Source: Opisthorchis felineus (Eukaryota > Platyhelminthes > Trematoda > Opisthorchiida > Opisthorchiidae). From it: DNA of 64,000 nucleotides. Where the stretch lies: contig SJOL01009659.1 of the NCBI GenBank assembly GCA_004794785.1, positions 137,402 to 201,401 of the forward strand. The letters run 5' to 3'. The position numbers were made by a program, and so were the translations under genes. The notes below the pieces were generated by a model that was not told the origin of the DNA, did not search any database, and was given only the letters and a program-made list of their open reading frames with translations. Shown here piece by piece: positions 6,959 to 48,485 of this stretch; positions within the stretch are counted from its first letter, which is position 1, and every line of letters begins with the position of its first letter.

Positions 6959-7357
6959 GGTGAATACACTCATTTGCATGTCAATTTGATTTTGACGGGA
7001 GACTCATCTTGAACCCAGCTGAATCTCTCGTTTATGATGTTGTTAAGCAACTGAACGTGCTGCACCAGGCCGCCTCATGTTTCAGTTGGTACGATATTCG
7101 AGATATCGCGATACATTGTATAGACGTAGTGAACTACTCATAAGGTTGCTGGAGAACTTCGACAGCCCACGACCGGTTTCGCCCTTCCTGGGGCTCATCA
7201 GTAGGCGCAGTCTCCGAGTTTCCCTCAACCTTATGTTCTACTTGAACCGACGTTGAACTGAATTCAATACATACAGTCATTTGAAAATCAGTATTATAAG
7301 GGGGAGATTCAGTTCAGTCTCCCGTGAAAACCAAACTGATTTTTAAATGAATGTATT
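6959..7357 (-). repeat. Hammerhead-bearing repeat, locus 1
   Basis: This locus holds one repeat unit of about 300 nt read on the minus strand, with the ribozyme at 7140-7234. The unit includes the recognisable block around 7066-7100 (GGCCGCCTCATGTTTCAGTT on the plus strand) that recurs near 10990, 11350, 34795, 42635 and 48310. Beyond the ribozyme a partial next unit starts at about 7235 and ends in a fold-back: 7266-7292 and 7335-7357 are inverted copies of the AATACATACATTTGAAAATCAGT-type unit edge. It belongs to the same family as the other hammerhead loci. Confidence 0.75.
7140..7234 (-). ncRNA. Type I hammerhead ribozyme, core intact (copy A)
   Basis: Read on the minus strand: CUGAUGA at 7201-7195, then GCCC (7194-7191), loop CAGGAA and GGGC (7184-7181) as a perfect 4-bp helix II. 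GAAA follows at 7180-7177, CCGG at 7176-7173, and UC at 7172-7171, so the predicted self-cleavage is after 7171. Inner helix I pairs GCGCCUA (7208-7202) with GUGGGC (7170-7165) imperfectly, because one C is missing next to the core. A distal 9-bp helix pairs ATAAGGTTG (7140-7148) with CAACCTTAT (7226-7234). All strictly required core bases are present. Activity is inferred, not shown. Confidence 0.72.
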
Positions 7358-7497
7358 AGACGAAGTACGAAACAGGATGTATTTAACTGAGTGAACAAGA
7401 AAAGCGGGTTCGAACTTGAACATCTTTAGCTAAACTACTATTTTTTGCTGAAAATAATTCTTTTCAAGTGTATACGGCTTCAAAAAACTAATGAAGT

Positions 7498-7722
7498 ATG
7501 ACATGCACACGACAGGAGGAGCAAAAGTATTGTGAAAACAACGAGGTCACCATATTATTGAGAGATTGTAAGCAAGTGAACGATTTAAAAGCCGAAATAA
7601 GCTGTTTCGTGACACATGTATTGGATGCAACAAAACAGACTTTACACAAGATGGACTCAGAAATCGAGTCATCTTGGTTAGAAGTGGCGCGGCCACAATT
7701 TTCAAACTTTCTAAAAAATTGA
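7498..7722 (+). CDS. Small unassigned ORF, 74 codons
   Basis: The frame starts at the first ATG after an in-frame TGA located six bases upstream and ends with TGA. The product would be hydrophilic and mixed-charge, with Cys residues near positions 3, 12, 23 and 36, and without a signal peptide or membrane segment. Its composition is more protein-like than most short frames nearby, but I recognise no family and see no splice context that decides it. It may be an exon, a retroelement scrap or chance. Confidence 0.22.
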   Translation: MTCTRQEEQKYCENNEVTILLRDCKQVNDLKAEISCFVTHVLDATKQTLHKMDSEIESSWLEVARPQFSNFLKN

Positions 7723-10369
7723 TGATTTTTAAAGAGAGTTCCAGTTGGACACGTTCTCTCGAAGAGAATTCAACGAAATTTCTTTTCTAGAGAAATTCAT
7801 GCAACCACCAACTTTGCGTGTTCACTCATTCCGCGAGAGAACCGTGGCCTGAGAGAATGCATACACCGGCAATTCACTAATTCTCATTATGCTATTCTAC
7901 ATTTAATCCCAAATATTTTATGCAGAGCGCCTTCAACACTGCCGTCCTGTGTGTAGATGAATCAATAGTCCGACCTATGATTTCGTCAAGTTCTTCAACA
8001 CACCACAGAAGTCTTGCAGTTGTATTATTTCCACAAAGATCACCGATTTATTGTCCGTTCCACCAGAAACCCACTGGATAATCTCTTGCGCCCAATCCAG
8101 TCCTTATTGGCTTAGGTGATCACATTCAGTTTGTTGTCTGTCGTCACGAATCACACCCAGACTGCATTCCCCAGATGTGTTCTTATCACATCTAAACACA
8201 CAATGGAGCTTTTATGAACTGCCATTCTTCGCAGTTGCGTCAGCTGACCCCCGGTCGCAAAATGTTTACGTCCGCGAATTGTGATCTTAGCTGGGGTTGT
8301 GGGCTTTGTGTGCACGGGATAGCGTATCTCATCAGCCTATGTAGATAGCCGTCAGTTCAGCTGTTATGCGTTGGGTAATTTCCTTTTTACAACTGCCCAC
8401 GAACTTGCATGTCACATGTATTTTCGAAACTGCAACACAAGCCGAAGGTGCATGCAACAAACATGCGATCCAGGTTCCCCATAAGCTGATCGACATCTTT
8501 CCAGGAGCATCAGGAGAACCACATGGACAAGATGGATTCCAAGATATTTGGAATAAAGACCGAGCTCAAATTATTTGCCTCAGGAAGATTGAAAGAGGCA
8601 TCCAGGTAAAAAATTAACAAAATATGGATAGACAGGATATGATAAAACAAAATAACTAAAAGATGTGTTTATGTCCTCAATATTTCTAACTCCGGTCCAT
8701 CTAACTGTAGCCTTTAGGTGCATCCATGTCCAAGAATCTAGGGTACTATTTCGAGGCTAACATTTCCTTCCTCGGATGCAAATTTGTATGTCAGACATGA
8801 CTCAGATGTTCAGCAGTTACACATTCATTACGTTTGCGCTTCCAACTCTCCCTGGTGTGTCGACTGCCTTTGAGCCACAGCGTCCAATGAAGGCCAGTGT
8901 ACTTGATCAAAGTTGGTGAATTTCCCGATCTCGAAAAACGGCTGTTCGCATCAGTTTCAAATTTCGCTTGACTAAAGTGAAACCCAAAACCTAATTGAAA
9001 TCTGCGACGTCCTGATGTTAACTAGTCCCGTTTAATATCAGACAGCTAACTGTAAGTATGTGGATCATCTGTACAGGACCTAAACCTGGTAACTTGGTAT
9101 TGTGCGTGCAAGGCTCATGTATCCAAAAAACACTTCGTGATCATTTCACATTAGCTGTTCAGTAGCCAGTAACTTGCAAAAGTCAACCAACAACAATTAT
9201 GGTCTCTGCCTCTAGAGTTTACATCCATACCTCAGCACACTATGATTGGTATCCCTGTAAAACCTGATCCAGCACACGGGAAGGTCATATCTCTCTATCA
9301 GATATAGTCATCTGCCATCAAGTATGGAGCCGCTGAGGACAAGTGCTGAATGGTCAGCTGAATTTCCGTAGCATTAGGCCGTTTTTGTGTCATAGACTAG
9401 CGGAGGTAACACAGAGTCTACGCGAAGGTTAGATATGTCACAAAATACATCCAAGTTGGTCGGATCGATTGTGCCAACATCTATTTTGAATACACTGCCA
9501 AATAACTAGAACTTTCGCAAACACCAAAGCATCCTATTCGGAATGTGACCAGTCTGTTTGGACGCTTACCATAGAGTGCAGTGCTACCCAGTTCCATTTT
9601 GTCTGTTTTACTTTACAAATATTTAGTCTCTCAGGGAAAAATTTCAGGCTCTATCAATGGATATATTTTGTTGCATGATCCATGTCCAAGTAGAACTGAT
9701 CGCAACTGATCCAATAATGCAGGCGACCAACTAAAAATGACATATTTTACTCCTTGATAAAAAATTAATTACGACAGTAGAGGTTCAAAATCGATGATCG
9801 TTCTATAAAACCTCTGCATGTATTCAGGACATCCGGTATAATCGATCAGAAATAGAGTCTTGAATGCAAAGCAAACACGTAGTCATTCTCATTAATCCGA
9901 CATGAAAACTGTCTGCCTCCTGGTTTCTCACTAACTAGGTCGAGGGAACTATCAAAATGTATTCTTACACCGCCTGGGTAATACTGTGCCCACACTTTAG
10001 CGAGTGGAATTGGCCAAACTTGTAGCTGCTAAATTAAATCAGTCACCAATGAGCCAAGAAACCACCTCTGCTCGCGAACTGCTGTTTCGTCTGGCTGTTT
10101 ACTTACGCTTTTGTAATTTGTAATGGCCAACTTTTGCATTTCAGTCAAACGTCGATAACAGCAACGGATATTTTAATGTTATGTTGGAATGCGGTTTGAA
10201 AAACTGCGTCTATCCTATTAGGTTCAAGTAGTTTTTGCAACTTTTATTACGCAGAAATTTATTGAAAGTGCTTCTGCAGGTGTAAGCAACAAGAGCACTG
10301 CTTTTCCAAATAGCACAATGAGCAGGAAGCTTTTTTGACTGTTCTCACTATGCACAATCGCATGACACT
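7723..10369. other. Long stretch with no gene recognised
   Basis: Frames are short; the longest is 83 codons at 8366-8617 with no motif. I recognise no tRNA, repeat family or reverse transcriptase motif in this 2.6 kb. It could be intergenic or intronic. Confidence 0.45.
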
Positions 10370-10575
10370 CGTTTAGACAGTCCTGCTCTTTTCCTGGCGC
10401 AGTTACTCCAATGAGTCCACACCAAAGGTTGGAAGCACTGGACTTGACTTTCGCTCTTATTAAGGCCCAATAACAGCTCATGTCTTTGGTCATGCCGGGG
10501 TTCGAACTCCGAACATCTGACACAGGGGGGCGTGCGCACACTCCCAGCGCACATCGGAAGCGCCTGCATTGTCAC
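10370..10575 (-). mobile_element. tRNA-derived SINE, family 2 (minus-strand copy)
   Basis: On the minus strand a B-box-like GAGTTCGAACCCC lies at 10509-10497, followed by CGGCATGACCAAAG. The body then carries a conserved block GGTGTGGACTCATTGGAGTA (near 10425-10406) and a CGCCAGGAAAAGAGCAGGA stretch. The same order, B box, CGGCACGACCAAGG, TTTGGTGTGGACTCACC, then CGCCAGGACAGGAGGA, occurs at 60255-60450 on the plus strand. The A-box region is more decayed. The long overlapping frames on both strands here are by-products of the repeat. Confidence 0.6.
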
Positions 10576-10802
10576 GTCTGGACAGGCGAACGTGTCCAGA
10601 CACACGTGACACACAAAGACTCATCCGGTTACTTGTCGAAAACCTGGATTGCAGTGACGTGAAATGTTGGTGAAAGTTCATCTGTATATCTATGTCGCTT
10701 ACTTTATGGGAAACGAGTCCCGTCCAAGCAGATGTATTTTCAGATGGGTTGAATGTTTACACGTAACACAATACTCATTAGGTCGCTGAAAACGCCTCGA
10801 CA

Positions 10803-10846
10803 AGCAACGGCAGGTTTTGCCCTTCCTGAGTCTCATCAAGTAGACA
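10803..10846 (-). ncRNA. Decayed hammerhead ribozyme (copy B)
   Basis: On the minus strand the core reads CUACUUGAUGAGA, helix II residues AGGAAGGGC, then AAAACCUGCC. The first core C is replaced by U and GAAA has become AAAA, so catalysis should be lost. The position equivalent to the cleavage site is 10809. Confidence 0.55.
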
Positions 10847-11101
10847 CAGTCCCCGAGTTTCCGTCAACCTTATGTTCTACTTGAAGCTAAATTGGACAAA
10901 CTTTGACAAATACACTCACTTGTATATCAATTTGGTTTTCAAGGGAAACTCAGCTGAATCTCTCGTTTATGATATGCTTCAAATGAATGTGGTGCACAAA
11001 GGCCGTCTCATGCTTCAGTTGGTGCGATATTCAAGATATCGCAAAACATTGTTGTCTAGGCGCAACACACAGCACACAAGGTGGCTGAAAACTCCTTGAC
11101 A

Positions 11102-11146
11102 GCCCGTGACCGGTTTCGCCATTCTTGAGGCACATCAGGTAGGCGT
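11102..11146 (-). ncRNA. Decayed hammerhead ribozyme (copy C)
   Basis: On the minus strand GCCUAC leads into CUGAUGU, where the last core A is U. GCC/GGC closes helix II around UCAAGAAU, and GAAACCGGUC is intact. The position equivalent to the cleavage site is 11108, exactly 299 nt from that of copy B in the same orientation. One core change (A to U) should abolish or strongly reduce cleavage. Confidence 0.6.
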
Positions 11147-11192
11147 GAGCACTGAATTGTCGAATTTCGTGCAACTTGGGTTCAAGTAAAAC

Positions 11193-11290
11193 ATAAGGCT
11201 CACGGAAACTCAGGGGCTGCGCCTACCTGATGAACCCCAAGAAGGGCGGAACCGGTCGTGGGCTCTCTAGGGGCTTTCAGCAACCTTACG
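11193..11290 (+). ncRNA. Decayed hammerhead ribozyme (copy D)
   Basis: GCCTAC at 11221-11226 precedes an intact CTGATGA (11227-11233). ACCC and GGGC form three helix II pairs around CAAGAA. GAAA has become GGAA (11248-11251). CCGGTC follows, then GTGGGC at 11258-11263, which pairs fully with GCCTAC, counting one G-U, as helix I. Outer ATAAGG (11193-11198) can pair with CCTTA near 11284-11288. The A-to-G change in GAAA should inactivate it, but this copy shows the original 6-bp helix I best. Confidence 0.62.
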
Positions 11291-11410
11291 AGTAGTGTTA
11301 CGTCTAGACAACAACGTACTGTGTTATCTCGTATGCCGTACCAAATGAAACATGAGGCGGCCTGGTGCAGCACATTCAGTTGAAGAACGTGTTGGATGTT
11401 CGTTTATGTG

Positions 11411-11874
11411 TGAGAGTTAGCCAGGCATTCAGACACAAGAGTGAAAAACAATAATTTCGCCAGTAGTGCAGTATACAGTGAACCACTGGTATACTGAATC
11501 ATAATATTGCCCATGTGCCCATCACAAAGATCAAAAGATGCGATCAATGAGTGTCTGCAAGTGAGAATCAACTGAGTTTTATGTCTGATTTAAGTCTACT
11601 TATTTATCCCCAAAAATGGAATTCTAAAACATGACAATTATTTCTACGGTCACTGCTTTGTTCACTAAGTTAGACAGGGAAGAGGAAAAAATCATGTGGT
11701 CTTATTTGTATTTGGCTGCAGGACATAAGATAGCACTATGTGCACCGATAAACAACCATCCGGGACTAAACCGGAAAATAGCTCCACACGGTTGAGCTAG
11801 AAGACGATTTTGAATGGCATCAGTTTTAGAGGTAATCTGGAGTAACCTGGGTTACAACTGCACTCTAGTTAATT
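11411..11874. other. No gene recognised
   Basis: No coding frame, RNA gene or repeat was recognised here. Confidence 0.4.
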
Positions 11875-11957
11875 TACTCGTTTGCAAACTCATTTGGTTT
11901 TAACGGAAGACTCAACTGCATCCAACTAAATGCCTCGTTGATGACATTCTGCGTCGG
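11875..11957 (+). repeat. Fragment of the hammerhead repeat unit
   Basis: The block TTTGCAAACTCATTTGGTTT followed by ACGGAAGACTCAACTG and a CCTCGTTGATGACATTCT stretch matches the unit body between ribozymes at loci 1, 2 and 6. No ribozyme core is attached. Confidence 0.45.
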
Positions 11958-14900
11958 AACCGCGCCCATACAACAACAGAGCTGTATACTTTAGTGTTTC
12001 TAGAATGAGTAGTTATCATTCACGTAGATGCTCATGCGCATTCTCAAAGTTTCATGTTTGTGCTGTAAAAACAAGCGTACAAGCATGCGATACCTTTGTA
12101 CTTTTTCAACTTGGTATAAGTAACGCTTGCTCTTCTTGTATCCTTATACTTCACGAAGTGTTCCAGGTCAGAAATCTTGTAAGATGAAAACTGTTTTTAA
12201 ACTACTTTATATCTCACTCCCCAGCACGAGTTTGCCCTTCTACAGTGGGTGAACTGAGTAGGCGAGAGCTTCCAACAAACAAACATGTCTGTTCCACATT
12301 TAGTGAGCTTCCGGACGGTTGTATCCTTCCGCCTGATTGGTACCTGTGTGTCTGTACCCACTGCATCCGTTTCGCTATCCATTGATTTGTAGATTTCGGC
12401 ATTCATCATACAAGAGTAGCTATCGACCGCAGTTTCACTCCCACTAGTCTGTCAGTTGTTTGCCGCCCTGAGGCGGGTTTATTCAGTCTTGTCCCGGGCA
12501 TGTGCATATCACTACTCTGATGGACTTCCTCTACCGAAATGTCTGCTTCGTAAGTGTTGTGCGTAAAGCAAGAAACAGTCGAACATTACAATGGGCAGCG
12601 TTCGGGTGGGGACCACACTGGCATGTGTACTTTGTTTGGCAAGCAGATCTTATTGCCTCCCCCAGTTTGCTCTTCACCATTTGGTTCGACACTTCAATAG
12701 CTGAGAAATTTTCCAGTCGAATTAGCAAGTGGAATTATCTCCAATAGAAACAGGATATTGCAATCTAGCAGCTCTGAATGGGCTATGTCGAGATAAAGTC
12801 GAGCTGGTCCAAGGGACACTCGGAACTATGAGGGTTTTTTGGTTAACACGTCACAGTACCACTCGGATTCCACCCCAATATAATTCTTAGAATAGTGCTA
12901 CGGTAGGTGTCCTGATGCTAATCTACGAATGGTGTCTAACGTAGTATAGATTGTCGTTAGTTTACCCACTGAGATGGTCAATTTAGTTGCAGACGTTTCA
13001 CAACCAATCAGGGTGACCTCATCAATCGGTGACAACCACTGACGCACCGGTGTACTCCGCTTCCTAATGACGCACTAATGGTGAGGCTTAAACTACCTGG
13101 CTCAACAGACAAAGCTATGACCAGGATTCAATTTGTACCGTGAAACCCGAAGTGTTTTACATCTCTTAGGTTCTTGACTTCACATCGAGTCGTCTTGATG
13201 CCTCTGTTGAGACACTTTTCGATCAGTCAATTCATCCTAAAGATTATATCTCGACATCTCACACAATGGAGGGAATTCTTGACATGAAGGTCTTTACAGC
13301 CATTGAAGAATCTGTAGCAATACTACGTCACTACACACGCTGTATCACCTAACATTCGATAGGGGTTATTGAGTCCATTTCAGAATATCTTCAAAACATT
13401 CTGCTAGCCTCGCAAACTATATAAAAGCCTCAGTAATATTTGAACGGCAGGTAATTTCATTTTTTAGCCCATGCTAAGATTTGCTTATTGATTAACTTAC
13501 TCTTCAATAAGAATTCAAGGAAGAGCCATCGCAAAGGCACTTAGCGAGTGAAGGATTTGTGGGTGATACTAGACTAACTGCCAGTCATTTCTTCGGTTGA
13601 CATCCAATTGGATTTGTACAATAGCAACAAACTCCGAACTAAGGCCAACAGATGACCCTCAAACTGAAATATGCACCAGGTGCACGGTGCAGACTGCGGC
13701 TATGTTTGGAGTTGTCGTGGCTACACTGACCATTATATAAGACATAGCCAGCACGAGTAAGTGAGAATGTATGCAAATCTTGACAGTTCTGAAACTTCAC
13801 TAATGACATGCTGGACGACGGTAGAATCACCAAGACAACAGACCACACAAGGCTGGACCACCTTCGGCTCAAAGGACCTTAGTCAAGGCTGGCGTTTCCT
13901 GGACAGAAGAGTTTGTGCCAACGTTGCAAGTAAATAGCAACTAAACACAAGTAAATATGAAGTAAATAATGTCAGGTAATAATGATATCGATTAACACCA
14001 AGTAAACATCAGAATACATCACCAATTCTTCTTCCATAACTCAATGAAATAACGAAGTTTTTGAAGTAATTTTGTGACGCCGTATCATGAAGTCTTAATT
14101 TATCACCCACAAAAGTCTATTGAAAGATTATCGTATTGAAACTGTTATACCTGGTGCACCACCACTAGCCTTGCATTCAAACTTCCGGGCAATTTAGCTG
14201 TTGTTCTTTTTACCAGCACTAATATGATTGCTGAATTAAACGAGCATTTGCGTAAACCTCACACCGTTGGGAGATCTTATCATGTTGACCTTGTATGATT
14301 GCAAATTCAAGCAATATAATTAAAAATCCGTAGTCTTATTAGAATTATTAGGGATATTTGGCCTGAACTTCTCCACAATCACGCTGAAAAGTTCCGGCCT
14401 ACGAGTGAAAAAAGTGCAAATCCGGTGGGATGAATAAGCAGTTTATCAGCTGGCAAACGCAGGGTTTTGGGTGATTAGAGGGAAAGACAGCACTTGAAAC
14501 TAGACGACCGGAACAGAATAAGTTGAATTCACTTACGCTTTGACAGCCATAGTAGTTCCATCAGTATTTTCTGACTCGGATTCTACCAGTCCACGTTGTA
14601 ATTTGCACACGCATTCGAACACGCACCAGCGGGATTACAACACCACCACGGCATGCAAGCGTGCCTGCGAGGTTTAAGACCCTACAACATTACCCATGGA
14701 CAGGAGGTATGTGAATTCACGTGTGTCCTCAAAAAGAACATTTGCCAAATCCATCCTGTTTCCTTTCTCAACTCGCTGTTCATACGGAGTATAGAGTTGA
14801 TCTAGTCAAAAGCGGAGCAACCGGTAGTCTTTTTTCATGATCATACCAACTTGTACCTGAAGCCTCGGCAAGATGGCAGAAGTCCCGCCAAGCTAAAGCT

Positions 14901-17094
14901 AGTGGGACGGAAGTTATTTTCCAAAACCTTACACGCCTCCACAAGCCCTGTCAGTCCAACGCTTCAGTCGGATGTTTGTGTTGGGCTAGTCCTAGGTTAC
15001 CCTCCCTGTCCGGGTTTTTCTTCCCATTTTAAAGCCATATTCAAATAGATTGACATTGTTGTACAGCAGTGAAGCACCAATGCCCTCAACTTCTGTTGTT
15101 GTCAGTGACGGTGATGATGATTACAAGAGTTGTAATCGTCGTTTAAAATCTCATCATCGAAACAAGTGGCTGTCCTCCAAGGGAGGTGCAAATGACTAAA
15201 ATTTCACTGACGGCTTTACGGCTTGGCTTTCAAGGTATAGGGCTGCTCCATAGGGAGATTCTTTGCGTTGGCTAACCAACTTCGACACAGTCGGGCTGCC
15301 TGTACATAGGCTAGGCCCGTTGGTTTACAGTATCTGTTCTGCACTCTGAGATGAGGTCTGTAACTCAAAGACGTACTTTACTCTGGAATTCGCATATCCA
15401 CAGGCATACCGAAGACGTGGTGAATTTGGCTTCGTATGACCTATTGACAGGCTCAAATGGAGTGAATGATTGATCACTTCACTAGCGACCACTTCAATAT
15501 TAATACTAATAATAGTAATTAATTAATAATGCTATTATTTTCCAGGGACATGATTTGTCTAGTTGTTATGGTCAGGAATAAAACAACCATTTCGACCGCT
15601 GATAGAAGCCGTTCTTTACCAGACTGTGCTTTCCACATCATCTATTTCTTCACCAGCGTAAGACTTCCATCAACATATTTGGCAGCTGCAAACAAACCAT
15701 TCGACAGCTTGCTTGAAAACAGGCTGCACAAGCCTTACGTGTGCCTCCATTATCTATCCATCCCACGTATGTGAAGTATTAAATTGTCGCAGCCGGTCGT
15801 TGAACCTTGAGACGGGTCACTACGTACTGGGTGATCTCTATTTAATGGTTGTCAGATATTGTAAGCAGCTGATAGATGACGGATAGGGAAAATCCGATCA
15901 TTAACTTGAAATTCTCTCTGGAGTAATTCTGTATCCTAGAGATACCAAAAAGGCGAGGAACTGCTAGCGTGTATGCAACGACTATCAGTGAAGTGAACCA
16001 CAAGTGCTAGTACATGGTAATCGGTTGTGTAATCTGCATTGCGTCGCACAGATGGGTGGCCTTTGTCTAAAAATAACATTTATAGGGACAGTTGTCTAGT
16101 GAGAACTGAGTAGCCACCCAGACGAAACCTCGTCTCCCTAAGAGAGAGTTCGTATGGAAAGTGACCCTTTTTGGGCAGAGCACTTTAGGATGAGAGTCCG
16201 CCATTCCATCTGATGGCCCCCAATGTTCACAGGGACTGCGGGATTAACCGGCCCTATGTTAAAAACGCCAGTAGGCGGGACGCAAACGAACTTACAGTTA
16301 TAAATAAATTGGTAGAAGCTGGTCACCAGAATTGGAAATTTCACGTTGTCAGAAAGTTTAAAAGTTTGTATGCTCGACAATGTGGAAAACTCCTGTAATG
16401 GGTTGGCATCTTGATGAATAACTGGGGTCGGCACAGCACATCATCGATGTCCGACACTGATGCTTTGCTACCGTACAAGCATGATCTATTTAGAGGACGT
16501 GTTGTGGAAAAGGAAACAAAGAGGATAGGGAAGGGACCCAGCATTAACATACCATAATCGCTCCTAGGTGCTTACAGACAAACTGGCAATAAGGACGTCA
16601 CAGATGCCGACTAGCAGCTTCTCTAGTCAAGCACAGAGAAATCATGCGGGGACCATTCTGGAAGACTGACTTTAGTAATTGCCTTCGTACCACTCTGCTA
16701 GATCGATCACTTCTCTGATTGCGTCACTCTGAAATAGATAGGACTATTCACCTACGTTACGAGCAGGTGGTTTTATATATAGTGTGTGAAAGTATTATGG
16801 CAAGCAGTTTTTATCAGCTTTCTCCGCTGGCGTTCAACTTTGGTTACGCAACTTTTAAAGATTCATCATTCAGGGAATTTGTGAATAACTTCAAGTTGGT
16901 GTGCGCAGAACTTTTTAAACCTCACGTTGCATCCTTAGGAATTTCGGGACACCATGAAGGACAACCCAAAGTAAATGTAAAGAATCAGTACATTTAACGG
17001 CATGCGATAGCCTTCGTGAGTCATCATCGGAAGATAGCATTCGTGCACCCCTGTCACTAAAGTAAGCAAACGTCTTGTTGTTGGGATCTCTTTG
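11958..17094. other. Five-kilobase stretch with no gene recognised
   Basis: Frames are all under 100 codons. Examples are 12197-12409 (-), 12502-12747 (+), 13639-13872 (-), 15529-15774 (+) and 16138-16434 (-). None has a motif I recognise. AT-rich tracts occur near 15495-15535. It is probably intergenic or intronic, with possible old repeats that I cannot name. Confidence 0.45.
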
Positions 17095-17097
17095 AAA

Positions 17098-17140
17098 GCC
17101 CACTACCATTTCCGCCCTCCTTGGGGTTCATCAGTTAGGC
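17098..17140 (-). ncRNA. Decayed hammerhead ribozyme (copy E)
   Basis: On the minus strand GCCUAA precedes an intact CUGAUGA (17134-17128), followed by ACCC, CAAGGA and GGGC. GAAA is changed to GGAA and the CCGGUC segment to AUGGUA. GUGGGC remains at the 3' side of helix I. It is predicted inactive. Confidence 0.5.
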
Positions 17141-17312
17141 GTCATCCCCGAGTTTCCATCAGCCTTATGTCCTGCTTGAGCACCACACCGCACGCAACCG
17201 GTGAAATACACTCATTTGCGAACTACGTGGATGTTTACGAGAGACCCATCTGAAAATCTCACGTGTGATATTCTTGAAAAAGAATATCGGGCCGATAGGA
17301 ATTCGGGGACTG

Positions 17313-17356
17313 GGCCCACCTGATGAGCCCCAAGAAGGGCAAAACCAGTACCGGAC
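17313..17356 (+). ncRNA. Decayed hammerhead ribozyme (copy F)
   Basis: GCCCAC precedes an intact CTGATGA (17320-17326). Helix II, GCCC-CAAGAA-GGGC, is perfect (17327-17340). GAAA has become AAAA (17341-17344) and the cleavage triplet region is CAGTA. It is predicted inactive, but it has the cleanest helix II in the window. Confidence 0.55.
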
Positions 17357-17440
17357 TGTCGAAGAGTATCCACTGGTGTGTTCGGTCCAGATGCAGAAAG
17401 GTCTGTTTTAGGTGTATATCAGCGTTGGCATTAATTACCA

Positions 17441-24560: not shown

Positions 24561-25339
24561 TAATGGAAGAAACAGGATCTTAGGATCTCAAGAATATACT
24601 ATGCCACCATAGATTCTCTGTACAGAGCAAAGAACTCAGCCGAATGTGGAATACTGTCATCATATCTGGGGTCAAGCAACTTCTAATCTTTCGACACTAC
24701 ATCAATTACACGCCGTTCATCCCGTTGCTACTACCTAAACTGGTAGCCCGCAAGCCTAATCATTCCATCGAAATGTGTCCTCACTAGCTTTAGTAAATTG
24801 CTACTACCTCCAACGGAGCATCAACCATACACGTTCTCAAACTTCCAAGTTTCCAAGCGAGGACGTCTGAGGGCGACTTGAAGTCATCCGTTCTCCTCCA
24901 CTTAAGCTTTTGCTAAAAGACCCGGTCCAGCTTGCAACTACTTGTGAGCCAACCATCTACCGTTTAACAGCGAAAAAGACCACGAGGTGCTGCTCCAACT
25001 CACCAACTCTCGTGCTCCCTACTGCCAAGAAGGCCAAACTACTACTACAGAATGCCGAAACCTACTGAGACCCCCAAACCACGCCAAAATCACAGTAGGG
25101 AAGCCGTCAAGCTATCTGGCCCAGAAAAGCCAGCTTCCGATGTGGCGCTCAAACCATCAATCAATTCACCAACGGCCAACAAATGTGTTCAGGCATACCA
25201 CAGAAGCACGGCCAACGATCATGAGCGTTCGGGCAATTCACAGAAGCAGTAACTGACGATGATGGGCTTTCACAGATCGGACAACCTAGATTCGAGATCA
25301 AAAATGCTCTTTAAATACCTCAATGCCCCTTGTGAATTT
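24561..25339. other. No gene recognised
   Basis: The frame at 24987-25256 is basic and Thr/Gln-rich without a domain. No RNA gene was seen. Confidence 0.4.
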
Positions 25340-25425
25340 TACGCTAGCTTGTTCGCAACAAAGCTGTTGTGTTCCTTGTGGGCAAGTCTTTTTCCGATAA
25401 AAACGCAAAAAGGCGGGGACAGTAA
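25340..25425 (-). repeat. Dispersed repeat A fragment
   Basis: The minus strand carries CCCACAAGGAACACAACAGC followed by TTTGTTGCGAACAAGC, matching the middle of the 3760-4110 copy (near 3858-3900). Neither flank of the repeat is kept. Confidence 0.5.
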
Positions 25426-26646
25426 TTAATTACAATACCTATCTTGGCCCGTAACCCTTGCACTCCCCAATCCACAAGAAAGGCCTTAGGACTTTTATAC
25501 AACAGGATCTGGGAGACAGCCCAAAAAAGGAATATTGATGTAAGCACAGATTTCGGCGGTGCCCCTCAGAACTTTGGACGGACATTTACAAACGCAGATC
25601 GCTCCAGCCCGCAACAGACCTTATTTTGAATACGTGACAGAAGCATGGTGCTGCCGCCCAAACGCGACCAAAGATTCGGAGAGCACGAAGTGCCATCGCG
25701 CTCGTCACCACTATTAGTGCCCTGTACCTATTGGTCTGTATGCTATCGCACAGAAGACTGAGTGACCTCGTTCCCAATACCGAAGGACCTCCAAGCCCTA
25801 TGGGCATTTCGTGACTCAGGTCCAGGCTTCCATTCCAACAGAATCCCTCAGACTGTGGGCCATGCTTTCACTCCCTCCATATCCGCCCTATACAGAACTC
25901 CCTATCCAGCTATGCCGTTTCCTCTTCAACGCCACTGGGAGTCAAATGCGGGGTGGATTTCCTATTGCAAGGGTTAAATCACACAGCAGTACGACTTTCC
26001 ACAAGGACAAACTCACAACAGGCGGCCCTCGCCATTTGGAGCACGTAAGAAATGAAATCACTACGCTTATTATTCCCGGCCGACCTCACTCAATCGATTC
26101 ACTCGTCTTGCGGTTGCAGGCCCTAATGCGTGTGAGTACACGATGTGCTTGTGGCTGTCTTTCGATCAGCCGTGATACCATAGGGGAAGTGGAGTACTAT
26201 AGATCACCAACGCACACAAGCCAAAAACCACGTCTCCTCAAAGGTGGAAGCAAAGGACATCTACGTAGCCCTACAACGTAGGCCCTGAAAAGCTGTGAAC
26301 GCTTAGGGCCACCAACCGATAAAAACAAGTATTAAATGTTGGGAACAAAAGTTAACCAAATGAGAAGCCATCGGTCTGGGTGACTCACGTTGAGAAGTTA
26401 GGTATCACGCAATTTCTATCTATTCACGACAGATCGTTCCCTCCTACTGCTGAATTCACGAACTGGTTAGTTCAGTATACCGAAATCAGATATCGATAAT
26501 ATCCAAATATGGAGCACCGGTACCCTAAATCCCACGTCTGTTTAACGATCGCTGTATGACGAGTATGGTACGAACCATCTATTGAGACAAAACTAAGGTT
26601 AAACCAACTAACAATATATTGTGTCTATCCTAAGGAATCAAACATC
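25426..26646. other. No gene recognised
   Basis: The longest frame is 156 codons on the plus strand (25811-26281). It has no recognisable domain, and a second open frame overlaps its start; the window is large enough to yield such a frame by chance. The part nearest 26646 would be the tubulin 3' untranslated and downstream region. A palindromic CAATATATTG at 26612-26621 contains a weak AATATA hexamer, but no canonical poly(A) signal is obvious close to the stop. Confidence 0.4.
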
Positions 26647-28055
<1,409 letters not shown>

Positions 28056-28108: not shown

Positions 28109-28109
28109 T

Positions 28110-33563: not shown

Positions 33564-34683
33564 CTACGATGTTCTGATTGGATGATGAATTCGGCCTGTT
33601 GTGTAAAGTAACGAACTATTCTGGCTAATCGAGGTTATCTTCAGCAAACATTCTTCATTTGATAGATAGTCCATTCTTTAGGTAAGTCTAACCTGGTGAA
33701 GCAATGCTTTAACTCATCCCCGCTTGTTTTCCATTGGAGAAAACAACCGAAATGAAGACACTGATCAGTCCTACTTGTACTACATTAGAGACCACTTTGT
33801 AAACTACTATCTAGAAGTGGGATAATTAGGAAGGCTCCACTGGTCTCATTCTCTCGACATCTAGACAAATTGGGGTGAATATTATTTAAAATGTCAAAAA
33901 TAAACTAGTATGTCGATCAGAGATAAAAGTCAAAATCACGTCCACCGGTCGCTTTCATGGGGATGCACTCAAGTTAGTACGACTGACATGAGTCCCTACA
34001 TTTTTTCGTAAGCTGTCAGTTATATTTGGATCTAATGCAGTACCTCTGGAGATGTCGTCAACTTTCTTATGGGCAGCTTGTTCAAATGCAGAGCGAAAAT
34101 TAAAATACTTGGGCACTGATGTAGTCACACAACGGGTCAAATGTTTCATATAGTAGGATTATGGTAAATTAGGAATAAGTATCACTTGAAAACATCTTTG
34201 CAAGACTTTCTGGTAGGTGACCATGGATTCCATCTACTTCTGAGGACTCCTTTGAACATTGTGGAGCAAACACTTTCCGAAAGGGAACACAAATATCCAC
34301 TAACCACTAGACGACTTAATCTGTCTTGTACCCTATGACTCTTCTACACCTTTGACTGGTTGTAGTAGGACCACATCGTTCATCATTTCTAACTCTTCCA
34401 TGAGCGGTTGTTTAGGTATTAGACAACTTTACACCCAAATACTTTATTCTCACAAAGCGCTGGTAGATACTTTTTACCACAACGCCCGTCAGTGATTTTG
34501 GGTGATCCTCTCGATAATGTCACTTCTGCAGAAGTTGGACACCGCACAATGTCACGTAAACATTATCCTTTGGATAATTCCATGATTCCTTTGGATTCCA
34601 TAAGGCTTTCACCCGGTACACAGTGAGAAGAATATCCTTCATATAAAAGAATACTATCAATACTTTGCATAAACGTAATCCAT
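33564..34683. other. No gene recognised
   Basis: This is where the reverse transcriptase of the neighbouring PLE remnant would be expected. Only a 64-codon frame at 33955-34149 is visible, and no catalytic motif was seen. Confidence 0.4.
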
Positions 34684-34905
34684 ACTCATAATGTTGTTGA
34701 AAGCTATTCGACGGCCCACGACCTTATGAGTAGTGTACTACGTGTATATACAATGTATCGCGATATCTCGAATATCGTACCAACTGAAACGTGAGGCGGC
34801 CTGGTGCAAAACATTCAGTTGCTAAAGAGCATCATAAACGAGAGATTCAGCTGAGTTCCAGGTGAGTCTCTCATCAAAAGCGAAGTGATATGCAGGTGAC
34901 TGTGT
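34684..34905. repeat. Hammerhead repeat, locus 4, with the ribozyme core deleted
   Basis: A minus-oriented ribozyme flank (ATTCGACGGCCCACGACC, ending at about 34722) is joined directly to a plus-oriented flank (TTATGAGTAGTGTA) and a unit body with GCGGCCTGGTGCA, TCATAAACGAGAGATTCAGC and GAGTCTCTCATCAAAAG. The CTGATGA and helix II segments are absent, as if a palindrome centre had been deleted. Confidence 0.62.
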
Positions 34906-42223: not shown

Positions 42224-42404
42224 GATGTCGTTCATTAAAAAAGTCCGACGATAACTGAATATAGCATGGGTAATAATGTTTGAATGGAGAGACAACAGAA
42301 ATAGCTACCGGAAGAAGAGGACTTAATCCGAGTGTTGTCCCTTAAAATTCAGCACTTTTTGAGCAGTGACGATAGGATCTCGAACTGAAATCGGGGTTTG
42401 TTTA

Positions 42405-42690
42405 CGAGACGTTTCACTACTCATAAATTGGTAGAAAAATCTTTGATAGCTTACGACCGGTTTTTTCCCTTCTTGGTTTGCGGAAACTCGGGGACTGCGG
42501 CCAACTGATGAGTCTCAAGACGGGCGAAACGGGTCGGTGGCTGTCGAAGAGTTTTCAGCAATCCTATAGTTAGTGTGTTCCGCCAATAAACATACTGCGA
42601 GATCTCGAACATCGTATCAACTGAAGCATGAAGCGGCCTTTGTGCAACATTCAGCTGATTTGCGCTCCAAGAGTAGGTCGCTCACAGTCC
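42405..42690. repeat. Hammerhead repeat, locus 5 (fold-back)
   Basis: A truncated minus-oriented ribozyme flank (about 42410-42480, with CTTACGACCGG and CCCTTCTTGG on the plus strand) is joined head-to-head to a plus-oriented ribozyme (42497-42541) and unit body (to about 42690, with ATCTCGAACATCGTATCAAC and AAGCGGCCTTTGTGCA). The centre of inversion is near 42475. Confidence 0.65.
42497..42541 (+). ncRNA. Type I hammerhead ribozyme, catalytic core intact (copy G)
   Basis: CTGATGA lies at 42505-42511. GTCT and GGGC form helix II with two G-U pairs around CAAGAC. GAAA is at 42526-42529, then CGGGTC, placing predicted cleavage after 42535. Inner helix I is only GCCA with TGGC plus mismatches. 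All conserved core bases are present, but helix I is weakened and the distal helix I arm is lost in the inversion. Confidence 0.6.
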
Positions 42691-43426
42691 TCATTCAGCC
42701 CCTGAAACTTGTGGTTTTTCACCCTGTTGTTCTAGAGCCCACGGGCTTAATGGCCTCTAAAGGGATGGAGATGTCTTCTCCAGGAATGGAAATTCTCAGT
42801 AGTACGTGGCTGAGTGCGTTGTCGTGGACTCCAGGTGAGTGACATTTCTTCGGTGGAAGCCCTGATGAAAGGAGAGATTAATATAGTTCCGTTTGACTGA
42901 GAAACGCCTTGATTTCTAGGGTAATAACGCTTACCAGTTTCCATTTTTGTTATCAAACAATTCTTGTCGCACTTTCGGTCCAGACTGGTGGAATCAGAGC
43001 AATCCTAGATTTATCCTACTCGTCCTTGAGTTTAGCTTTTTGGGAGGTGAGACAGCTGGACAAATAAATCCATGTCCTTGACAGGAAAATGCTCAGTACA
43101 CCGTGGCACACGGAACAAACTGGGGCAATCGATCGAACTGGAATGACCAATGAGGAGTGAACTTGTGTGCCACAGTAGAGCGCCACTATATATCACGTAT
43201 GAAAAAGCGATCGATGGGTCGAACTAATGGGTAGGATCTTTTCTATATAACTACACTGGAACTAGGATTACATTAATCCGTTTAACCTAGCCGATTGATT
43301 AAATTCTAACGGGAGAAAGTAATCTGGATTAATAAGTGTCCACAAAAAGCGGTATACAACCGGGCATAAAACGGACAAGTAGCGCGAGAGCATACTGAGT
43401 GGAATACTATCATTCTTTGAGTAAAA
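42691..43426. other. No gene recognised
   Basis: Upstream region of the next gene. No TATA box in a convincing position and no repeat was identified. Confidence 0.4.
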
Positions 43427-43918
43427 ATGGACCGAATGAATGTGAGACCAACCAGAGTGGATTCGGATGAAAAGCCTGGAGAGGATACCGATTCATCCGA
43501 TGAGAAAGATGAGTCCCTTCTATTGTTAGTTCAGCGTGCTAAAATAAGTCCACACTCATCAGAGAATAGGGAATCAGAGCAGGACAACGCTGACACATCG
43601 GACGAAAATGAAGCCAAATTGGAAGAGAAACCAGAGACCAGGTCATCTGTTTCAGCAATGCGTAGACCCAGCGCTATCAGTATATCAGACTACTTGGCTT
43701 CAAAAGCTGTTCAAGAAACAATCAAAGCCCAACGTCACAGCAAAAAATCTCCTCGAAGATCAAGTGCACCATCAAAATCGAGCGGTCGATCCGGTGAGAA
43801 GGTGACCTTGGCAGATTCCAAGAACGGTTCGACGCAAGTTAGCTCCAGTCACAAGGAGGAAAGCAAAGTTGCTAGGAGCGGCTCGTTGCCAACCCGCATT
43901 GAAGAGGAGAGTGAATAA
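43427..43918 (+). CDS. Disordered Ser/Lys/Glu-rich protein, 163 aa, hypothetical
   Basis: The start is the first ATG after an in-frame TGA nine bases upstream, in a strong context (AAAATGG). The product is highly hydrophilic and rich in Ser, Glu, Lys and Arg. An acidic first half has DTDSSDEKDE, a Ser-rich middle has SVSAMRRPSAISISDYL, and a basic stretch follows (KKSPRRSSAPSKSS). Several RRPS and RRSS-type sites suit basophilic kinases. There are no Cys, no membrane segment and no fold I recognise. The biased composition over the whole frame favours real coding over chance. It may be a complete single-exon gene or an alternative exon of a larger one; no clear poly(A) signal was found. Confidence 0.55.
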   Translation: MDRMNVRPTRVDSDEKPGEDTDSSDEKDESLLLLVQRAKISPHSSENRESEQDNADTSDENEAKLEEKPETRSSVSAMRRPSAISISDYLASKAVQETIKAQRHSKKSPRRSSAPSKSSGRSGEKVTLADSKNGSTQVSSSHKEESKVARSGSLPTRIEEESE

Positions 43919-46900
43919 GCCGCTCGGTCAACAGTTTTAATCGCATTATTTCCTGTGAGTGAAATACAGCACGTAAAGCATGAGAACAAAGTAATTTTGT
44001 GTTTTGACTGAATAATGGTACTTTTTTTTGCGAAACGTACTGAGCATACGAATGGTTACATTGTTTTTTTTCTAGGCAAGATACTACCAGTTTGCTTGCA
44101 ATAGGGAAATGTTAATCCAATAAGAATGCTTGCGGAGGTCAGATCCACTGCACGCGATGTATCAAGTATATCCTTCCGATTCAGTCAAGTGGTCAAACTC
44201 GACGAACGAATCAACCAACAACGACATCCAACCATTCACTATTCAGTCCCATTGCTAAACTCATTGTCCGTTCAACGTACACCAAGGCAAAAGGAAAGGC
44301 AACAGTTAGGACGAAGGCATCATGTTTCCAGACTAAATGGAATAATTCATTCAGCATTTTCGTGACCATGATTGTTAGAATGCTTGTGGTTTACTCGGAG
44401 TAATATGGCCTCCCATTGCACACTGAGTTTCATAGAATTTAGTTGCAACTTTTTCTGTCTTGAACAGATGAGGAATCCAAACCGATTCTAAATTGACAAT
44501 GTTTTTAAGTCAGTATGGACTTCCTGCAATAATTCGTCTGTATTACTCTAAAGCTAAGCGTGGGATATCACCCAGAAGGTTTAAAACGCCAGTTGCATCC
44601 GAAGTTAACTAGTACGAAAAATGCAGACCTTATTGAAACAAACTTTGAACTGATGTGAAACACATGGCCAGATATTCGATGGTAGGCGATTCACAAGGGG
44701 TTTATGGTTTTAAACAAAGACTGAACTCGAAGATCAGCACTTAACTACCTTTCAGACATGTGTCCTTTGCCAGTGTACAAACGAGATTGTCAAGCACCCT
44801 TTCATCTTAGGAGAAATCTGGTGAGACAACTGGCTCTTATTTTAGCACCTGTTTATTTTTACCTCGTGATGCGATATGCCGCAACAAATAATTTATACAG
44901 CTTCTTTCTACCGGCATGAAAAACGTAAACCATTTTGGGTTATACGGATGCGTTAGTCTAATCCCAATCGATCAATATTGATTAGTTTGAACACAATACA
45001 ATGACCTCTTTGAGAGACCACACCTAAGTCTGGTTAGAACTGTGCTCATCCTGGAAGTTTGTTCTCCACGGGAAAGGGGTTGGATCACGTTTGGCCACAG
45101 AGCACCAGAGAGTTCCCGGTAATTCTACACCCTTATGATAAGCGAATAAACGAGAGATGAAGGTTGGAGAAAAAAAATGCGCTTTGCCATCTACAGATTG
45201 TTTTGAGTACCAACTTCCCAACAGCTGCAACCGGCCGGCAGTTACCTCTTTAAAGCTCGAAAATTTTCTTTTTTGTCGTATACACCTTAATGATAGCTAG
45301 ATTCCTAATCGACAGTGGTTAGAAAATACTGTAGGGAGATATACAGCATTTTTGCACTGTAGCTTTTTGGTTAGCGAGAGGTCGATTTTAACATCCAGCG
45401 CATGACAAGTTTCCTGGAGAACCGCCCTTATCACAGGTGATGACTGGGAATTGATGTTGCCCACCATGATGGTTTCATATTGTCATTATACACACCATTT
45501 CCAGAAGCAGGAAACATTAACCTCATTTCTTTTGTGGCGGTCTGGCATTATTTGCCACACAATCGGGAATGTGATAGGGGAAGTTCCCTGTGCATTCATA
45601 AACTTCTGTGGTGACTCCACCCAATAAGAAAGAAAGAACATATCCCTGGAATAAGCTCGCTACAGGTATGAGATCGTTCGTTGTACCCATGCTTTCGGTA
45701 AAGCCACGATTCTCAAAACGACAAGGAAATATCTTAACGGGGAGAGCTAGTAGGCACCTCGTAGCCAATTTGTTGCATCAGAGGTATGTACATAACTATT
45801 TTAGATATCGACGTTAACAAACCGTTGCACGATGAAACACTACCAGTAACAATCTTTTCACGGCTATTCTGGTTAATCGAGTTTTGTTTTTTTGTGAAAA
45901 TGAGGTTTTACCACTAGAGTTACATTGTGCTCGATGTGGTAGGCTCACATGATACATGGGAATATAGGAGTGCACCGTATCATTATAAAAAATTAGGAAA
46001 ACTGACGATTTATTCGGTCCATACAATAACAAAAGACTTTTCAACACTGAGATTTTGTATTACCATAGGCTATAGTTAACATGTTACTTTGGTCTGACGT
46101 TGCATAATCCTCCGTATTAGTCTTCATACGAACTATAAATGTTGCGTCTTTGACTCGTTGTCACAGTGTCTTCGGTATCAGCATATTTTGTATACTTAAG
46201 TCTTGCTGATAGCACAACTAGAAAACATGACAAGAGCTATCTGCTGCCCCACTTTTGTTCAAACACTACCACCCTGTCGATCAATCGCTCCCCTTTCGTA
46301 AAAATACCAGCTTCCTCGTGGTCAGTCGCGCGCTTTGAATTAACAGGTGCTGCATGATGTTAATCACAAGTCGGTTGCTCACGGTTCAGCGGTAAGTCGC
46401 GCTTCCGGACCATCAAAAATGTCATATGATTGTTGACTTAGTTGGAGAGTAGTGGTTAAAACCCTGCACGTTTTATGAGCCATTAGGTCCTGAGTTTTGC
46501 CCGAAACGTTAATGCTCCTCTTTCACAATTAACTGTATAAAGTGGGTCATGGTTTTCTTGGGTTCGCTTGCATTTAGCTTTGCTACATGGGGTACTGTTG
46601 CTAACTTCTTTTCACGGGGAAAATTCTCATGTGGACAGACGTGAAGAGGAAAATGCATCAGGTGCATTCTTCTGTCAAACTCTTATAGTAACCGAATGGC
46701 ACCCGGACTCGAACTCTAAAGATAATATGAGGTCCTTTAAGCACGCTCTCTGAAAAAAGCATCATTAGGCTATCATTTGGCGGTGTTGGACTAAATTGAC
46801 TCATATGCTACTGTATCCAAATCGGAGTATGTTCCGCTTGTCTAAGTCGAAGTTTCCGGTCAGTTCTGCCAGGGCAGGTGGCTCAGCATTCATAAGTAAA

Positions 46901-48224
46901 ACGGTAAACGAGATTAGAGATGGTGTATTGGTGTAGTGTTCCGTTGGAGGTTTGGCAGAATACATCCAGCTGCTGAATTTCACATCGCGCGCAGGACCAC
47001 GAACGGTAAGGTACTACAGTTTCCAGAGTTTATTGCTATCAGAAGGTATAACTCAGTACTCTGTGAACAGAGGGAGCCAATCATATCACTGGTAACCACT
47101 TGGTGAACGGTTTGCTTTCTACATCCCGATGGTAAAGGCTATTCTTCGCCTTTATTCATTTGTTGACTTTGTTATGTAGTACATATCCGAAGAGATACAG
47201 CGAAGTGCACTCTGTGAATTGTGCAATAGCTCACTTCTCTGTATTCCTCTCAAGTTTGTAGCCGGAAAGTGTTTCAATGAAACACTGGCTCGAATCACGT
47301 TCTCTTAGATTAGTTAACCAATGGTTCTGTTTCGATTTGCTCAATTTAAGCACGCTGTATAAGACCGTGCACGTATTCGTACGTGTATTCTATGGCTTCC
47401 TCACCCGTTGATGGTATATCAATTCATGTGTCGATCCGCTGGAACCCTGAGCTCATCGGTGTCTCCAAATTGCTAGTCAGCTTACACTATGCCAATTTGG
47501 CAAGCAGGCACCTCGTTGCACCTGGTCTCATTAGCTCATTGTAAATAAATTACACAGCAGGCCACGCGCCCAGACGGGCGAACTACCACATTGGTCGGTC
47601 GATAAACCCTTCTCTGAGGGCCTTGAAGACAAGTGCAACCGTGCAACCCCCAGTGCGTGGACGAATTGAATGTAGCCAGAGCTTGAAAAATCAACGAATC
47701 ATCCTAACGATAGTTTGTTAACTGTCACAGCTGTGTCCCAAATACGGACTGCATAAGGGCGGTGAGACTGCCTCACGAAAAGCGCGGACCGTGCAACCGA
47801 CTGAAATGCATTTTGGAGTGCAAAGATATGAAAAAGAGCACCCAACTTCAGATAGAAGAAAGTTACAAAGGTTTAGCCGAATCGTCTGGCCCCGGGATAG
47901 CTTTATGAGTTCTGGTGCTAGCCGTCAAAGTCAGATAACTGTGTTTTTAATCTGTGTGGAATCCCTAACAGAGAAAAAGCTATAAACGGCCAAAGTCGTG
48001 ACGTCAGTTATTTCGCGTACTAATACTTCAGTTACAGCCCAGTGGTGCTGTGGGATAAAAACACTACTAAGAGATTCAACGAAGTTGCCAGTGTCCAACA
48101 ATTGTTCATATATAGGGCTTCTTGAACGACCAAAATCAGACCGAAACGGAGAGGAAATGAAATTTCACGTACACGTCACAAACAGTTCTCCATTAGGAAT
48201 AACGAAGTATCGACAATTACTCTC
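43919..48224. other. Four-kilobase stretch with no gene recognised
   Basis: A pyrimidine-rich acceptor-like TTTTTTTTCTAG ends at about 44075, but no open exon fits behind it. Frames at 44126-44365, 45523-45768, 45814-46047 and 47791-47985 are short and unassigned. A tRNA-like head (GGTTCAGCGGTAAGTCGCG, about 46382-46400) may be a decayed SINE, without a clear B box. Confidence 0.4.
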
Positions 48225-48485
48225 ATTTACACATCAGTTTGGTTCTCATAGGAGACTCAAATGAACCTCTCGTTTGTGATATTCTTCAACTGAATATGCT
48301 GCACAAAGGTTGCCACATGTTTCACTTGGCACGATATTCGAGATACCGAGATACTTTCACAAAGGAAACTACACACAAGGTTGCTGAAAACTCTTCGACA
48401 GACCACGGCCGGTTTATCTCTTCTTGGGACTAATCAGGTAGTCGAAGTGTTTTCAGCAAACTTGTGAGTAGTTCCTTTTATGAAA
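48225..48485 (-). repeat. Hammerhead repeat, locus 6 (hairpin)
   Basis: A plus-strand view gives the unit body (CATCAGTTTGGTTCTCATAG, CCTCTCGTTTGTGATATTCT, CACGATATTCGAGATACCG) leading into the ribozyme flank. The flank 48354-48399 is repeated in inverse at 48441-48485, so the ribozyme remnant sits in the loop of a long hairpin. Confidence 0.65.
48401..48440 (-). ncRNA. Decayed hammerhead ribozyme (copy H)
   Basis: On the minus strand CUACCUGAUUAGUCCCAAGA runs into AGAGAUAAACCGGCCGUGGU. The core has changes in CUGAUGA (G to U), in the helix II 3' strand, and in the GAAA and GUC positions. It is predicted inactive. Confidence 0.45.

What the first reader, a model, noticed from the sequence alone, without database searches (positions are those of the whole stretch)
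6959..48485. A dispersed ~300-nt repeat family built around a hammerhead ribozyme
At least eight places (7140, 10803, 11102, 11193, 17098, 17313, 42497, 48401) share CUGAUGA, a short GCCC/GGGC-type helix II with a CAAGAA-like loop, GAAA, ACCGGUC and a GCCUAC/GUGGGC helix I, plus a common unit body. Seen directly: the motif in conserved order on both strands and with the same flanks. Known: minimal type I hammerheads occur in Penelope-like elements and in schistosome SINE-like repeats. Inference: these are such elements in this genome.
Basis: partly seen in the sequence, partly recalled or inferred. Interest (0 to 1): 0.78.

Follow-up and report, generated by a model that had tools for sequence, protein, structure and literature searches.

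The report
Hammerhead-ribozyme repeats of a fluke genome
A parasitic-fluke genome carries thousands of copies of a ~300-base mobile repeat with a small self-cutting-RNA motif, and the way the copies are inserted suggests they are spread by a known kind of jumping gene (Penelope-like elements), although most copies examined in this window are decayed and cutting has not been tested.

Summary
All eight places lie in one dispersed family; I map 12 pieces in the window. The unit is 293-307 nt, with 5,693 exact core matches genome-wide against 0 for the reversed pattern. The motif reads as a type I hammerhead, GCCUAC-CUGAUGA-GCCC-CAAGAA-GGGC-GAA-ACCGGU-C^GUGGGC. Rfam gives no window hit at gathering score; young copies reach 36 bits against Hammerhead_HH9 (E 1.6e-5, cut-off 52). 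Helix III is a loopless palindrome; two consensus copies are predicted to pair as a double hammerhead, one alone misfolds. Insertions look Penelope-like (PLE): 16 head-to-head, 0 tail-to-tail joins, target-site duplications on a minority, two preferred 3' termini. PLEs with long open frames share the genome. Best reading: a non-autonomous element mobilised by PLE machinery. Against: cores drift like flanks, helices do not covary, 6 of 8 window cores are broken, two resident PLE termini do not match the unit, and a published PLE inserts in vitro without hammerhead cleavage. Cleavage is untested here. Known kind, useful new variant.

The parts
6963..7287 (-). Unit copy with one hammerhead (about 7155-7210) and full body; CTGATGA and GAAACCGGTC present, one base missing beside helix I
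10753..11145 (-). More than one unit in tandem: two hammerheads about 290 nt apart, both with core substitutions
11163..11382 (+). Head-to-head partner arm with a third hammerhead (11210-11277; core GAA reads GGA). Composite 10758-11390 has a weak candidate target-site duplication 10748-10757/11391-11400 (9 of 10 bases, score 7, reached by 16% of mismatched pairings)
11871..11944 (-). Fragment of the body (unit 188-261), no hammerhead
17077..17255 (-). Left arm of a head-to-head pair; hammerhead with core GAA changed to GGA and GUA at the cleavage site
17274..17372 (+). Right arm of the pair; hammerhead from about 17320 with G12 changed and GUA at the cleavage site
34666..34903 (.). Head-to-head insertion not in the finding: (-) arm 34666-34723 and (+) arm 34721-34903; candidate target-site duplication 34655-34665/34915-34925 (10 of 11 bases, score 8, reached by 4.4% of mismatched pairings)
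42415..42476 (-). Short left arm of a head-to-head pair
42475..42657 (+). Right arm; hammerhead from 42505 with unbroken core but non-palindromic helix III (ACGGGT)
48202..48448 (-). Left arm; hammerhead with core substitutions
48441..48477 (+). Short right arm of the head-to-head pair

Best explanation
A non-autonomous retroelement family of a trematode, probably opisthorchiid. Its 293-307-nt unit carries a minimal type I hammerhead whose helix III is a loopless palindrome (ACCGGU), so it should cleave as a pair of hammerheads on tandem or partner RNAs. It is inserted by the enzymes of resident Penelope-like elements: both strands of the target are cut, reverse transcription starts inside the RNA at preferred sites on each cut end, and the two cDNAs meet head-to-head, leaving an inverted pair flanked by a short target-site duplication. 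Shown by computation: family, unit, motif, predicted dimer fold, head-to-head bias, duplications on a minority, two preferred 3' termini, coexisting PLEs. Inferred: cleavage, dimerisation in vivo, mobilisation by PLE protein, twin priming.
For: Family, counts, control. Of 23 kept Rfam matches in nine loci, 21 are HH9 at 33-36 bits (E 1.6e-4 to 1.6e-5; 11 of them identical array copies), 2 at 25.5 and 27.1. Unconstrained cofold of two consensus copies gives the double hammerhead with 6-bp ACCGGU helix III at -41.3, against 2 x -18.6 for monomers that pair core bases; of 18 young motifs examined 12 do the same, that is 6 of 12 distinct sequences. 16 head-to-head and 0 tail-to-tail joins among 55 pieces; three of the 16 (L010, L012 and one in L011) lie in loci fetched because they showed such pairs, leaving 13 to 0. 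Flanking direct repeats score >=10 in 5 of 37 composites against 0.2% of mismatched pairings. Of 15 3' ends assigned in 10 composites, 12 fall at unit 258-269 or about 98-111, ranges set after seeing the data. PLE reverse transcriptase and GIY-YIG in the same genome. An O. viverrini predicted protein fuses the antisense of the unit to a 5'-truncated PLE reverse transcriptase. Head-to-head joins are called the most frequent inverted arrangement of PLEs (PMC3846280, passages); a purified PLE protein cleaves and extends both strands from internal start sites (PMC11167929, parts 1-2 of 4).
Against: No autonomous PLE with this unit as its own terminal repeat was found, though only two PLE-PLE junctions were read; these show no significant similarity to the unit (L042 best E 1.2, L043 none up to 10). 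Core drift equals flank drift; no covariation in helix I or II. 6 of 18 young motifs do not fold as the full double hammerhead. Duplications are clear in a minority. Inner junctions mostly do not lie at the cleavage site, so cleaved RNA as template is not supported. In the lizard PLE the hammerhead cleaved only with protein added, cleavage was not needed for insertion in vitro, and no RNA reads ended at the site (PMC11167929): a role for cleavage in PLE-driven insertion is thus unproven. The P0154 gene model could hide an intron.
Confidence: 0.6

Rival explanations
1. A classical metazoan non-LTR retrozyme: tandem ~300-nt units are transcribed, cut by the hammerhead, circularised by host RNA ligase, and the circle is reverse-transcribed.
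For: Unit size, GC of 45-47% and tandem dimers to an 11-hammerhead array match the description in PMC7229834 (parts 1-2 of 6). The ten complete units of L009 are identical, as copying around a circle, or unequal crossing-over, would give.
Against: Retrozymes are described there with canonical type I hammerheads; here helix III has no loop. The word 'inverted' does not occur in that paper's main text, whereas 16 of 17 close joins here are head-to-head. The preferred 3' termini lie past the cleavage site.
Confidence: 0.2
2. Debris of one autonomous PLE: solo or severely 5'-truncated terminal repeats (pLTRs) of a Penelope family, not an element in its own right.
For: pLTRs with inverted partners and an optional tail are the PLE norm (PMC3846280, passages). 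The unit's CUGAUG contains an ATG opening a 21-codon frame, like the PLE ORF starts in L042 and L043. P0154 joins inverted unit to PLE reverse transcriptase.
Against: Units stand in direct tandem without any ORF between them (L009, L014). The two PLE termini read do not match the unit.
Confidence: 0.15
3. An ordinary dispersed or satellite repeat in which the hammerhead fold is a chance or dead relic without a role.
For: Most window copies are broken (6 of 8); no covariation; core drift equals flank drift.
Against: Two young subfamilies keep the motif while bodies diverge (3 of 64 against 28 of 194 differences, Fisher p 0.045, weak, and both were found through the core pattern). The motif is the best kept Rfam match of young copies.
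Confidence: 0.05

Closest known systems
Penelope-like elements (Penelope/Poseidon/Perere type) and their pseudo-LTRs with minimal hammerheads
   Same: Minimal hammerhead with very short helix III, reported to act as dimers; head-to-head inverted terminal copies; short target duplications; start codon in or beside the hammerhead; alternative 3' ends
   Different: No coding region; 293-307-nt units in direct tandem; two 3' termini about 150 nt apart rather than a 30-40-nt tail; no sequence match to the two resident PLE termini read
Metazoan non-LTR retrozymes
   Same: ~300-nt non-coding tandem units with a type I hammerhead, GC under 50%
   Different: Helix III without loop; head-to-head insertions; loop-loop contacts not shown
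Hammerhead_HH9 (RF02275)
   Same: Best kept Rfam match; CUGAUGA, 4-bp helix II with 6-nt loop, GAAACC/GGUC
   Different: 16 bits or more below its cut-off; HH9 has a loop in helix III
Schistosome Sm-alpha SINE-like elements and W-elements
   Same: Flatworm repeats with type I hammerheads (335 bp for W36.2_W001); W-element hammerheads have an extremely short stem III, and three of five candidates tested there cleaved in vitro (PMC8490949, passages and section 11)
   Different: Sequences not compared here; head-to-head architecture not looked for in that paper by me

Membership tests
Hammerhead ribozyme, type I | Conserved core CUGANGA ... GAA and UH cleavage site with helix I open | tested here: met
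   Consensus and young copies; 5,693 exact matches; Rfam HH9 E 1.6e-5
Hammerhead ribozyme, type I | Rfam hammerhead model at gathering score | tested here: not met
   0 matches at gathering in the window; best 36 bits against cut-off 52 in young copies
Hammerhead ribozyme, type I | Covariation in helices I and II | tested here: not met
   37 motif rows: paired cells no higher than shuffles; copies are near relatives in neutral decay
Hammerhead ribozyme, type I | Self-cleavage | not testable with these tools
   needs in vitro transcription
PLE-type minimal (dimeric) hammerhead | Very short palindromic helix III and tandem copies able to form a double hammerhead | tested here: met
   ACCGGU; cofold of consensus; 12 of 18 young motifs, 6 of 12 distinct sequences; tandems L009, L014
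Penelope-like element insertion | Head-to-head inverted terminal copies | tested here: met
   16 against 0 tail-to-tail, 13 against 0 without pairs in loci fetched for that
Penelope-like element insertion | Target-site duplications | tested here: met
   5 of 37 score >=10 against 0.2% null; a minority of copies
Penelope-like element (autonomous) | Telomerase-like reverse transcriptase plus GIY-YIG ORF | tested here: not met
   No room for an ORF in 293-307-nt tandem units; PLEs exist elsewhere in the genome
Metazoan retrozyme | Canonical type I hammerhead with helix III loop and loop-loop contacts | tested here: inconclusive
   helix III loop absent; an internal loop in helix I could touch loop II, not tested
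Metazoan retrozyme | Circular RNA of unit length | not testable with these tools
   no RNA data here

The most novel reading that the evidence does not exclude
A missing link between retrozymes and Penelope-like elements: a retrozyme-sized non-coding element with a dimer-only hammerhead that parasitises PLE machinery, its head-to-head scars recording that PLE protein primes reverse transcription from both cut DNA strands in vivo.
Probability: 0.4. Interest if true: 0.62.

Novelty: new variant of a known kind. Interest (0 to 1): 0.42.

Why it matters
It has been proposed that PLEs mobilise hammerhead-bearing non-autonomous elements (PMC7761336, passages). This family gives a genome-scale, testable case: thousands of copies whose ends and junctions record how they were made. 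It also bears on an open question, why PLEs keep hammerheads at all.

Tried and rejected
Rfam at gathering score: nothing. Core-against-flank conservation on unselected copies: no excess in the core (whose labels 'GAAA' and 'CCGG' were one column off; recounted with the same outcome). Helix covariation: none (its 'helix I distal' row used wrong columns and is not used). Inner junctions at the cleavage site: two near unit 48-51 (L004, window 34723), otherwise variable. Strict core pattern in viral and prokaryote collections: 0 (too strict to be informative); unit in plasmids: none. Cofold of the hammerhead-like motifs of L039 and L040 does not give a double hammerhead. L013 first looked like a 293-nt tandem; I read its second copy as a separate head-to-head insertion. 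Pfam on ten long window ORFs: only beta-tubulin is convincing. Tubulin search for the species: flatworm-like, not to species. Rows dropped: the L009 array from the piece counts; overlapping matches (over 40%); one composite too near a locus end (37 of 38 used). For one search I took the composites scoring 8 or more, left out window 6963-7287 because its repeat lies inside the unit, and added window 10758-11390 (score 7).

Full report
What was checked. The window is G000:C1498:137402-201401 of an unnamed 630-Mb genome. A beta-tubulin gene (- strand, about 26650-27960) is 99% identical over 98% of one exon to a Schistosoma mansoni protein (the listed O. viverrini tubulin is at 95%), and a PLE reverse transcriptase fragment from the same genome is closest to Clonorchis and Opisthorchis proteins. 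I infer a trematode, probably opisthorchiid; no call names the species.

The repeat. blastn and nhmmer of a consensus find 12 pieces each in the window (a thirteenth blastn row, 19 nt at E 0.11, is set aside), covering all eight listed places. With the 307-nt genomic unit the map has 55 pieces over window and loci L001-L037, 12 of them in the window; L009 is left out of counts, overlapping matches are dropped, and L001-L008 were fetched because they hold the exact core. In 20 regions of 10 kb on two contigs there are 9 pieces in 154 kb of non-N sequence, against 11 in the window by the same search. The regions were not drawn at random and leave out some stretches known to hold matches, so the threefold difference is an upper bound. 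The strict core pattern occurs 5,693 times genome-wide, its reversed control 0 times. L009 holds 11 hammerheads at 307-nt spacing, and its ten complete units are identical.

The motif. The consensus is GACUGC-GCCUAC-CUGAUGA-GCCC-CAAGAA-GGGC-GAA-ACCGGU-C^GUGGGC-UGUC. Helices I and II are ordinary for a type I hammerhead. Helix III would be ACC/GGU with no loop, which one strand cannot form as three pairs; as ACCGGU is a palindrome, two copies can share it. Cofolding without constraints returns the double hammerhead for two consensus copies (-41.3 kcal/mol), while one copy alone pairs core bases (-18.6). Of 18 young motifs 12 do likewise, 1 partly, 5 not; seven of the 18 are one identical sequence, so 6 of 12 distinct sequences succeed. 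Rfam: no window hit at gathering score; Hammerhead_HH9 at 20-25.7 bits in the window and, in nine other loci, 21 matches at 33-36 bits and two at 25.5 and 27.1, cut-off 52.

Decay. Among window and sample rows, majority fractions are CTGATGA 0.816, GAA 0.758, ACCGGT 0.829, helix II 0.725, loop II 0.874, helix I 0.791, flanks and body 0.757-0.827 (32 rows, partial copies included): no protection of the core. Helices show no covariation above shuffles. Of 8 window cores, 6 are broken. This is what dead copies of a retroelement do; it neither proves nor disproves activity of the source. Two young subfamilies differ at 3 of 64 sites in the hammerhead neighbourhood outside the search pattern and at 28 of 194 sites elsewhere (Fisher p 0.045). 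That is weak, and both were found through the pattern.

Insertion anatomy. Close neighbours (under 60 nt) are head-to-head 16 times, tail-to-tail never, direct once. Direct tandems lying inside one match of the doubled probe are not counted as joins, and three of the 16 lie in loci fetched because the pattern list showed such pairs (13 to 0 without them). Both outer ends are therefore mostly 3' ends of the unit. Flanking direct repeats: scores of 10 or more in 5 of 37 composites against 0.2% of the 37 x 36 mismatched pairings; 9 or more in 6 of 37 against 0.9%; 8 or more in 10 of 37 against 4.4%. The clearest are 12 of 12 and 13 of 13 bases, outside the window. The two window candidates are weaker: score 8, reached by 4.4% of mismatched pairings, and score 7, reached by 16%. 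For ten composites, 12 of the 15 3' ends that I could assign fall at unit 258-269 (7) or about 98-111 (5); the other three lie at 65, 79 and 186. The ranges were set after seeing the data, and one end (L004 left, about 111) is my estimate across an 18-base unaligned tail. Two preferred starts of reverse transcription past the hammerhead resemble the two start sites and 'tail' reported for a lizard PLE (PMC11167929, parts 1-2 of 4). Head-to-head pairs with palindromic junctions are reported as the most frequent inverted PLE arrangement (PMC3846280, passages). That purified PLE protein cleaves and extends both strands suggests how: one cDNA from each cut end, joined where they meet. This step is inference. 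The same paper speaks against a needed role of cleavage: hammerhead mutants did not affect insertion in vitro, the hammerhead cleaved only with protein added, and no RNA reads began or ended at the site.

The presumed helper. PLEs are present: reverse transcriptase and GIY-YIG fragments, and, among 150 scored of 23,686 candidates, many matches without stops, three of them in open frames of 858 aa (some far longer listed frames probably run through unread sequence). One group of matches is about 70% and another about 58% identical to the query. At one junction between tandem PLEs of each group the ORF begins with the ATG of a hammerhead-like CTGATGATGTCACCTCGATTGGTGATGAAACGTTTGC (L042, L043). 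The repeat unit is built alike: its CUGAUG opens a frame MSPKKGETGRGLSKNFQQPYE of 21 codons before a stop. But the sequences do not match, so these PLEs are not shown to be its parent. An O. viverrini predicted protein, P0154, joins the antisense of the unit (74% over 58 aa) to a 5'-truncated PLE reverse transcriptase, which is the PLE head-to-head layout unless an intron lies between.

Literature. Minimal hammerheads without helix III in PLEs, and their action as dimers, are reported in reviews (PMC6155905, PMC7761336, PMC6466107; passages). The primary papers (Cervera 2014, Lunse 2017) are not held and were not read. PMC7761336 also states that thousands of minimal hammerheads lie dispersed in animal genomes and that PLEs are likely helpers of retrozymes. 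Minimal-type hammerheads of Schistosoma W-elements cleaved in vitro in three of five candidates (PMC8490949, section 11). Searches for 'hammerhead' with Clonorchis and with Opisthorchis list 4 and 1 papers, none of which by title concerns the ribozyme in those flukes; only open-licence papers are searched and I did not open them.

Verdict. The finding is real and correctly named in outline. The kind is known; the combination of a retrozyme-sized non-coding unit, a palindromic dimer-type hammerhead and PLE-style head-to-head insertions makes it a variant worth recording, and one that makes the 'PLE helper' idea testable.

Noticed in passing
L042 325-361, L043 (reverse complement) 164-200, L040 from 304, L037 - strand from 1678; related motif in L039 from 347: Junctions of two PLE groups (about 70% and 58% identical to P0154 in the matched reverse transcriptase stretch) share an unchanged 37-nt hammerhead-like motif (CTGATGA-N19-GAAACGTTTGC) whose ATG starts the ORF; L037 and L039 carry related ones. 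Rfam gives no match up to E 0.5 for L040, L042, L043.
   Followed up: partly
window 50492-50602 and 51746-52335, + strand: Decayed PLE reverse transcriptase/GIY-YIG-like fragments by tblastn (E 1.6e-4 and down to 1.2e-15).
   Followed up: no
window 26650-27960, - strand: Beta-tubulin gene with what looks like a very short intron, 99% identical over one exon to a Schistosoma mansoni protein.
   Followed up: partly
window 10361-10522 with 60304-60465; 1090-1153 with 1431-1494; 3807-3907 with 25337-25437; 56804-56877 with 57333-57406: Other repeats outside the mapped hammerhead pieces.
   Followed up: no
L013 about 3386-3475: Sequence not matching the unit between two hammerhead units, ending in a short inverted arm of the unit: it looks like a head-to-head insertion beside another copy, next to an assembly gap.
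   Followed up: partly
L004 2436-2483; window 34721-34723: Two head-to-head inner junctions lie within a few bases of the hammerhead cleavage site (unit about 48-51); could be reverse-transcriptase stops at helix III or chance.
   Followed up: no
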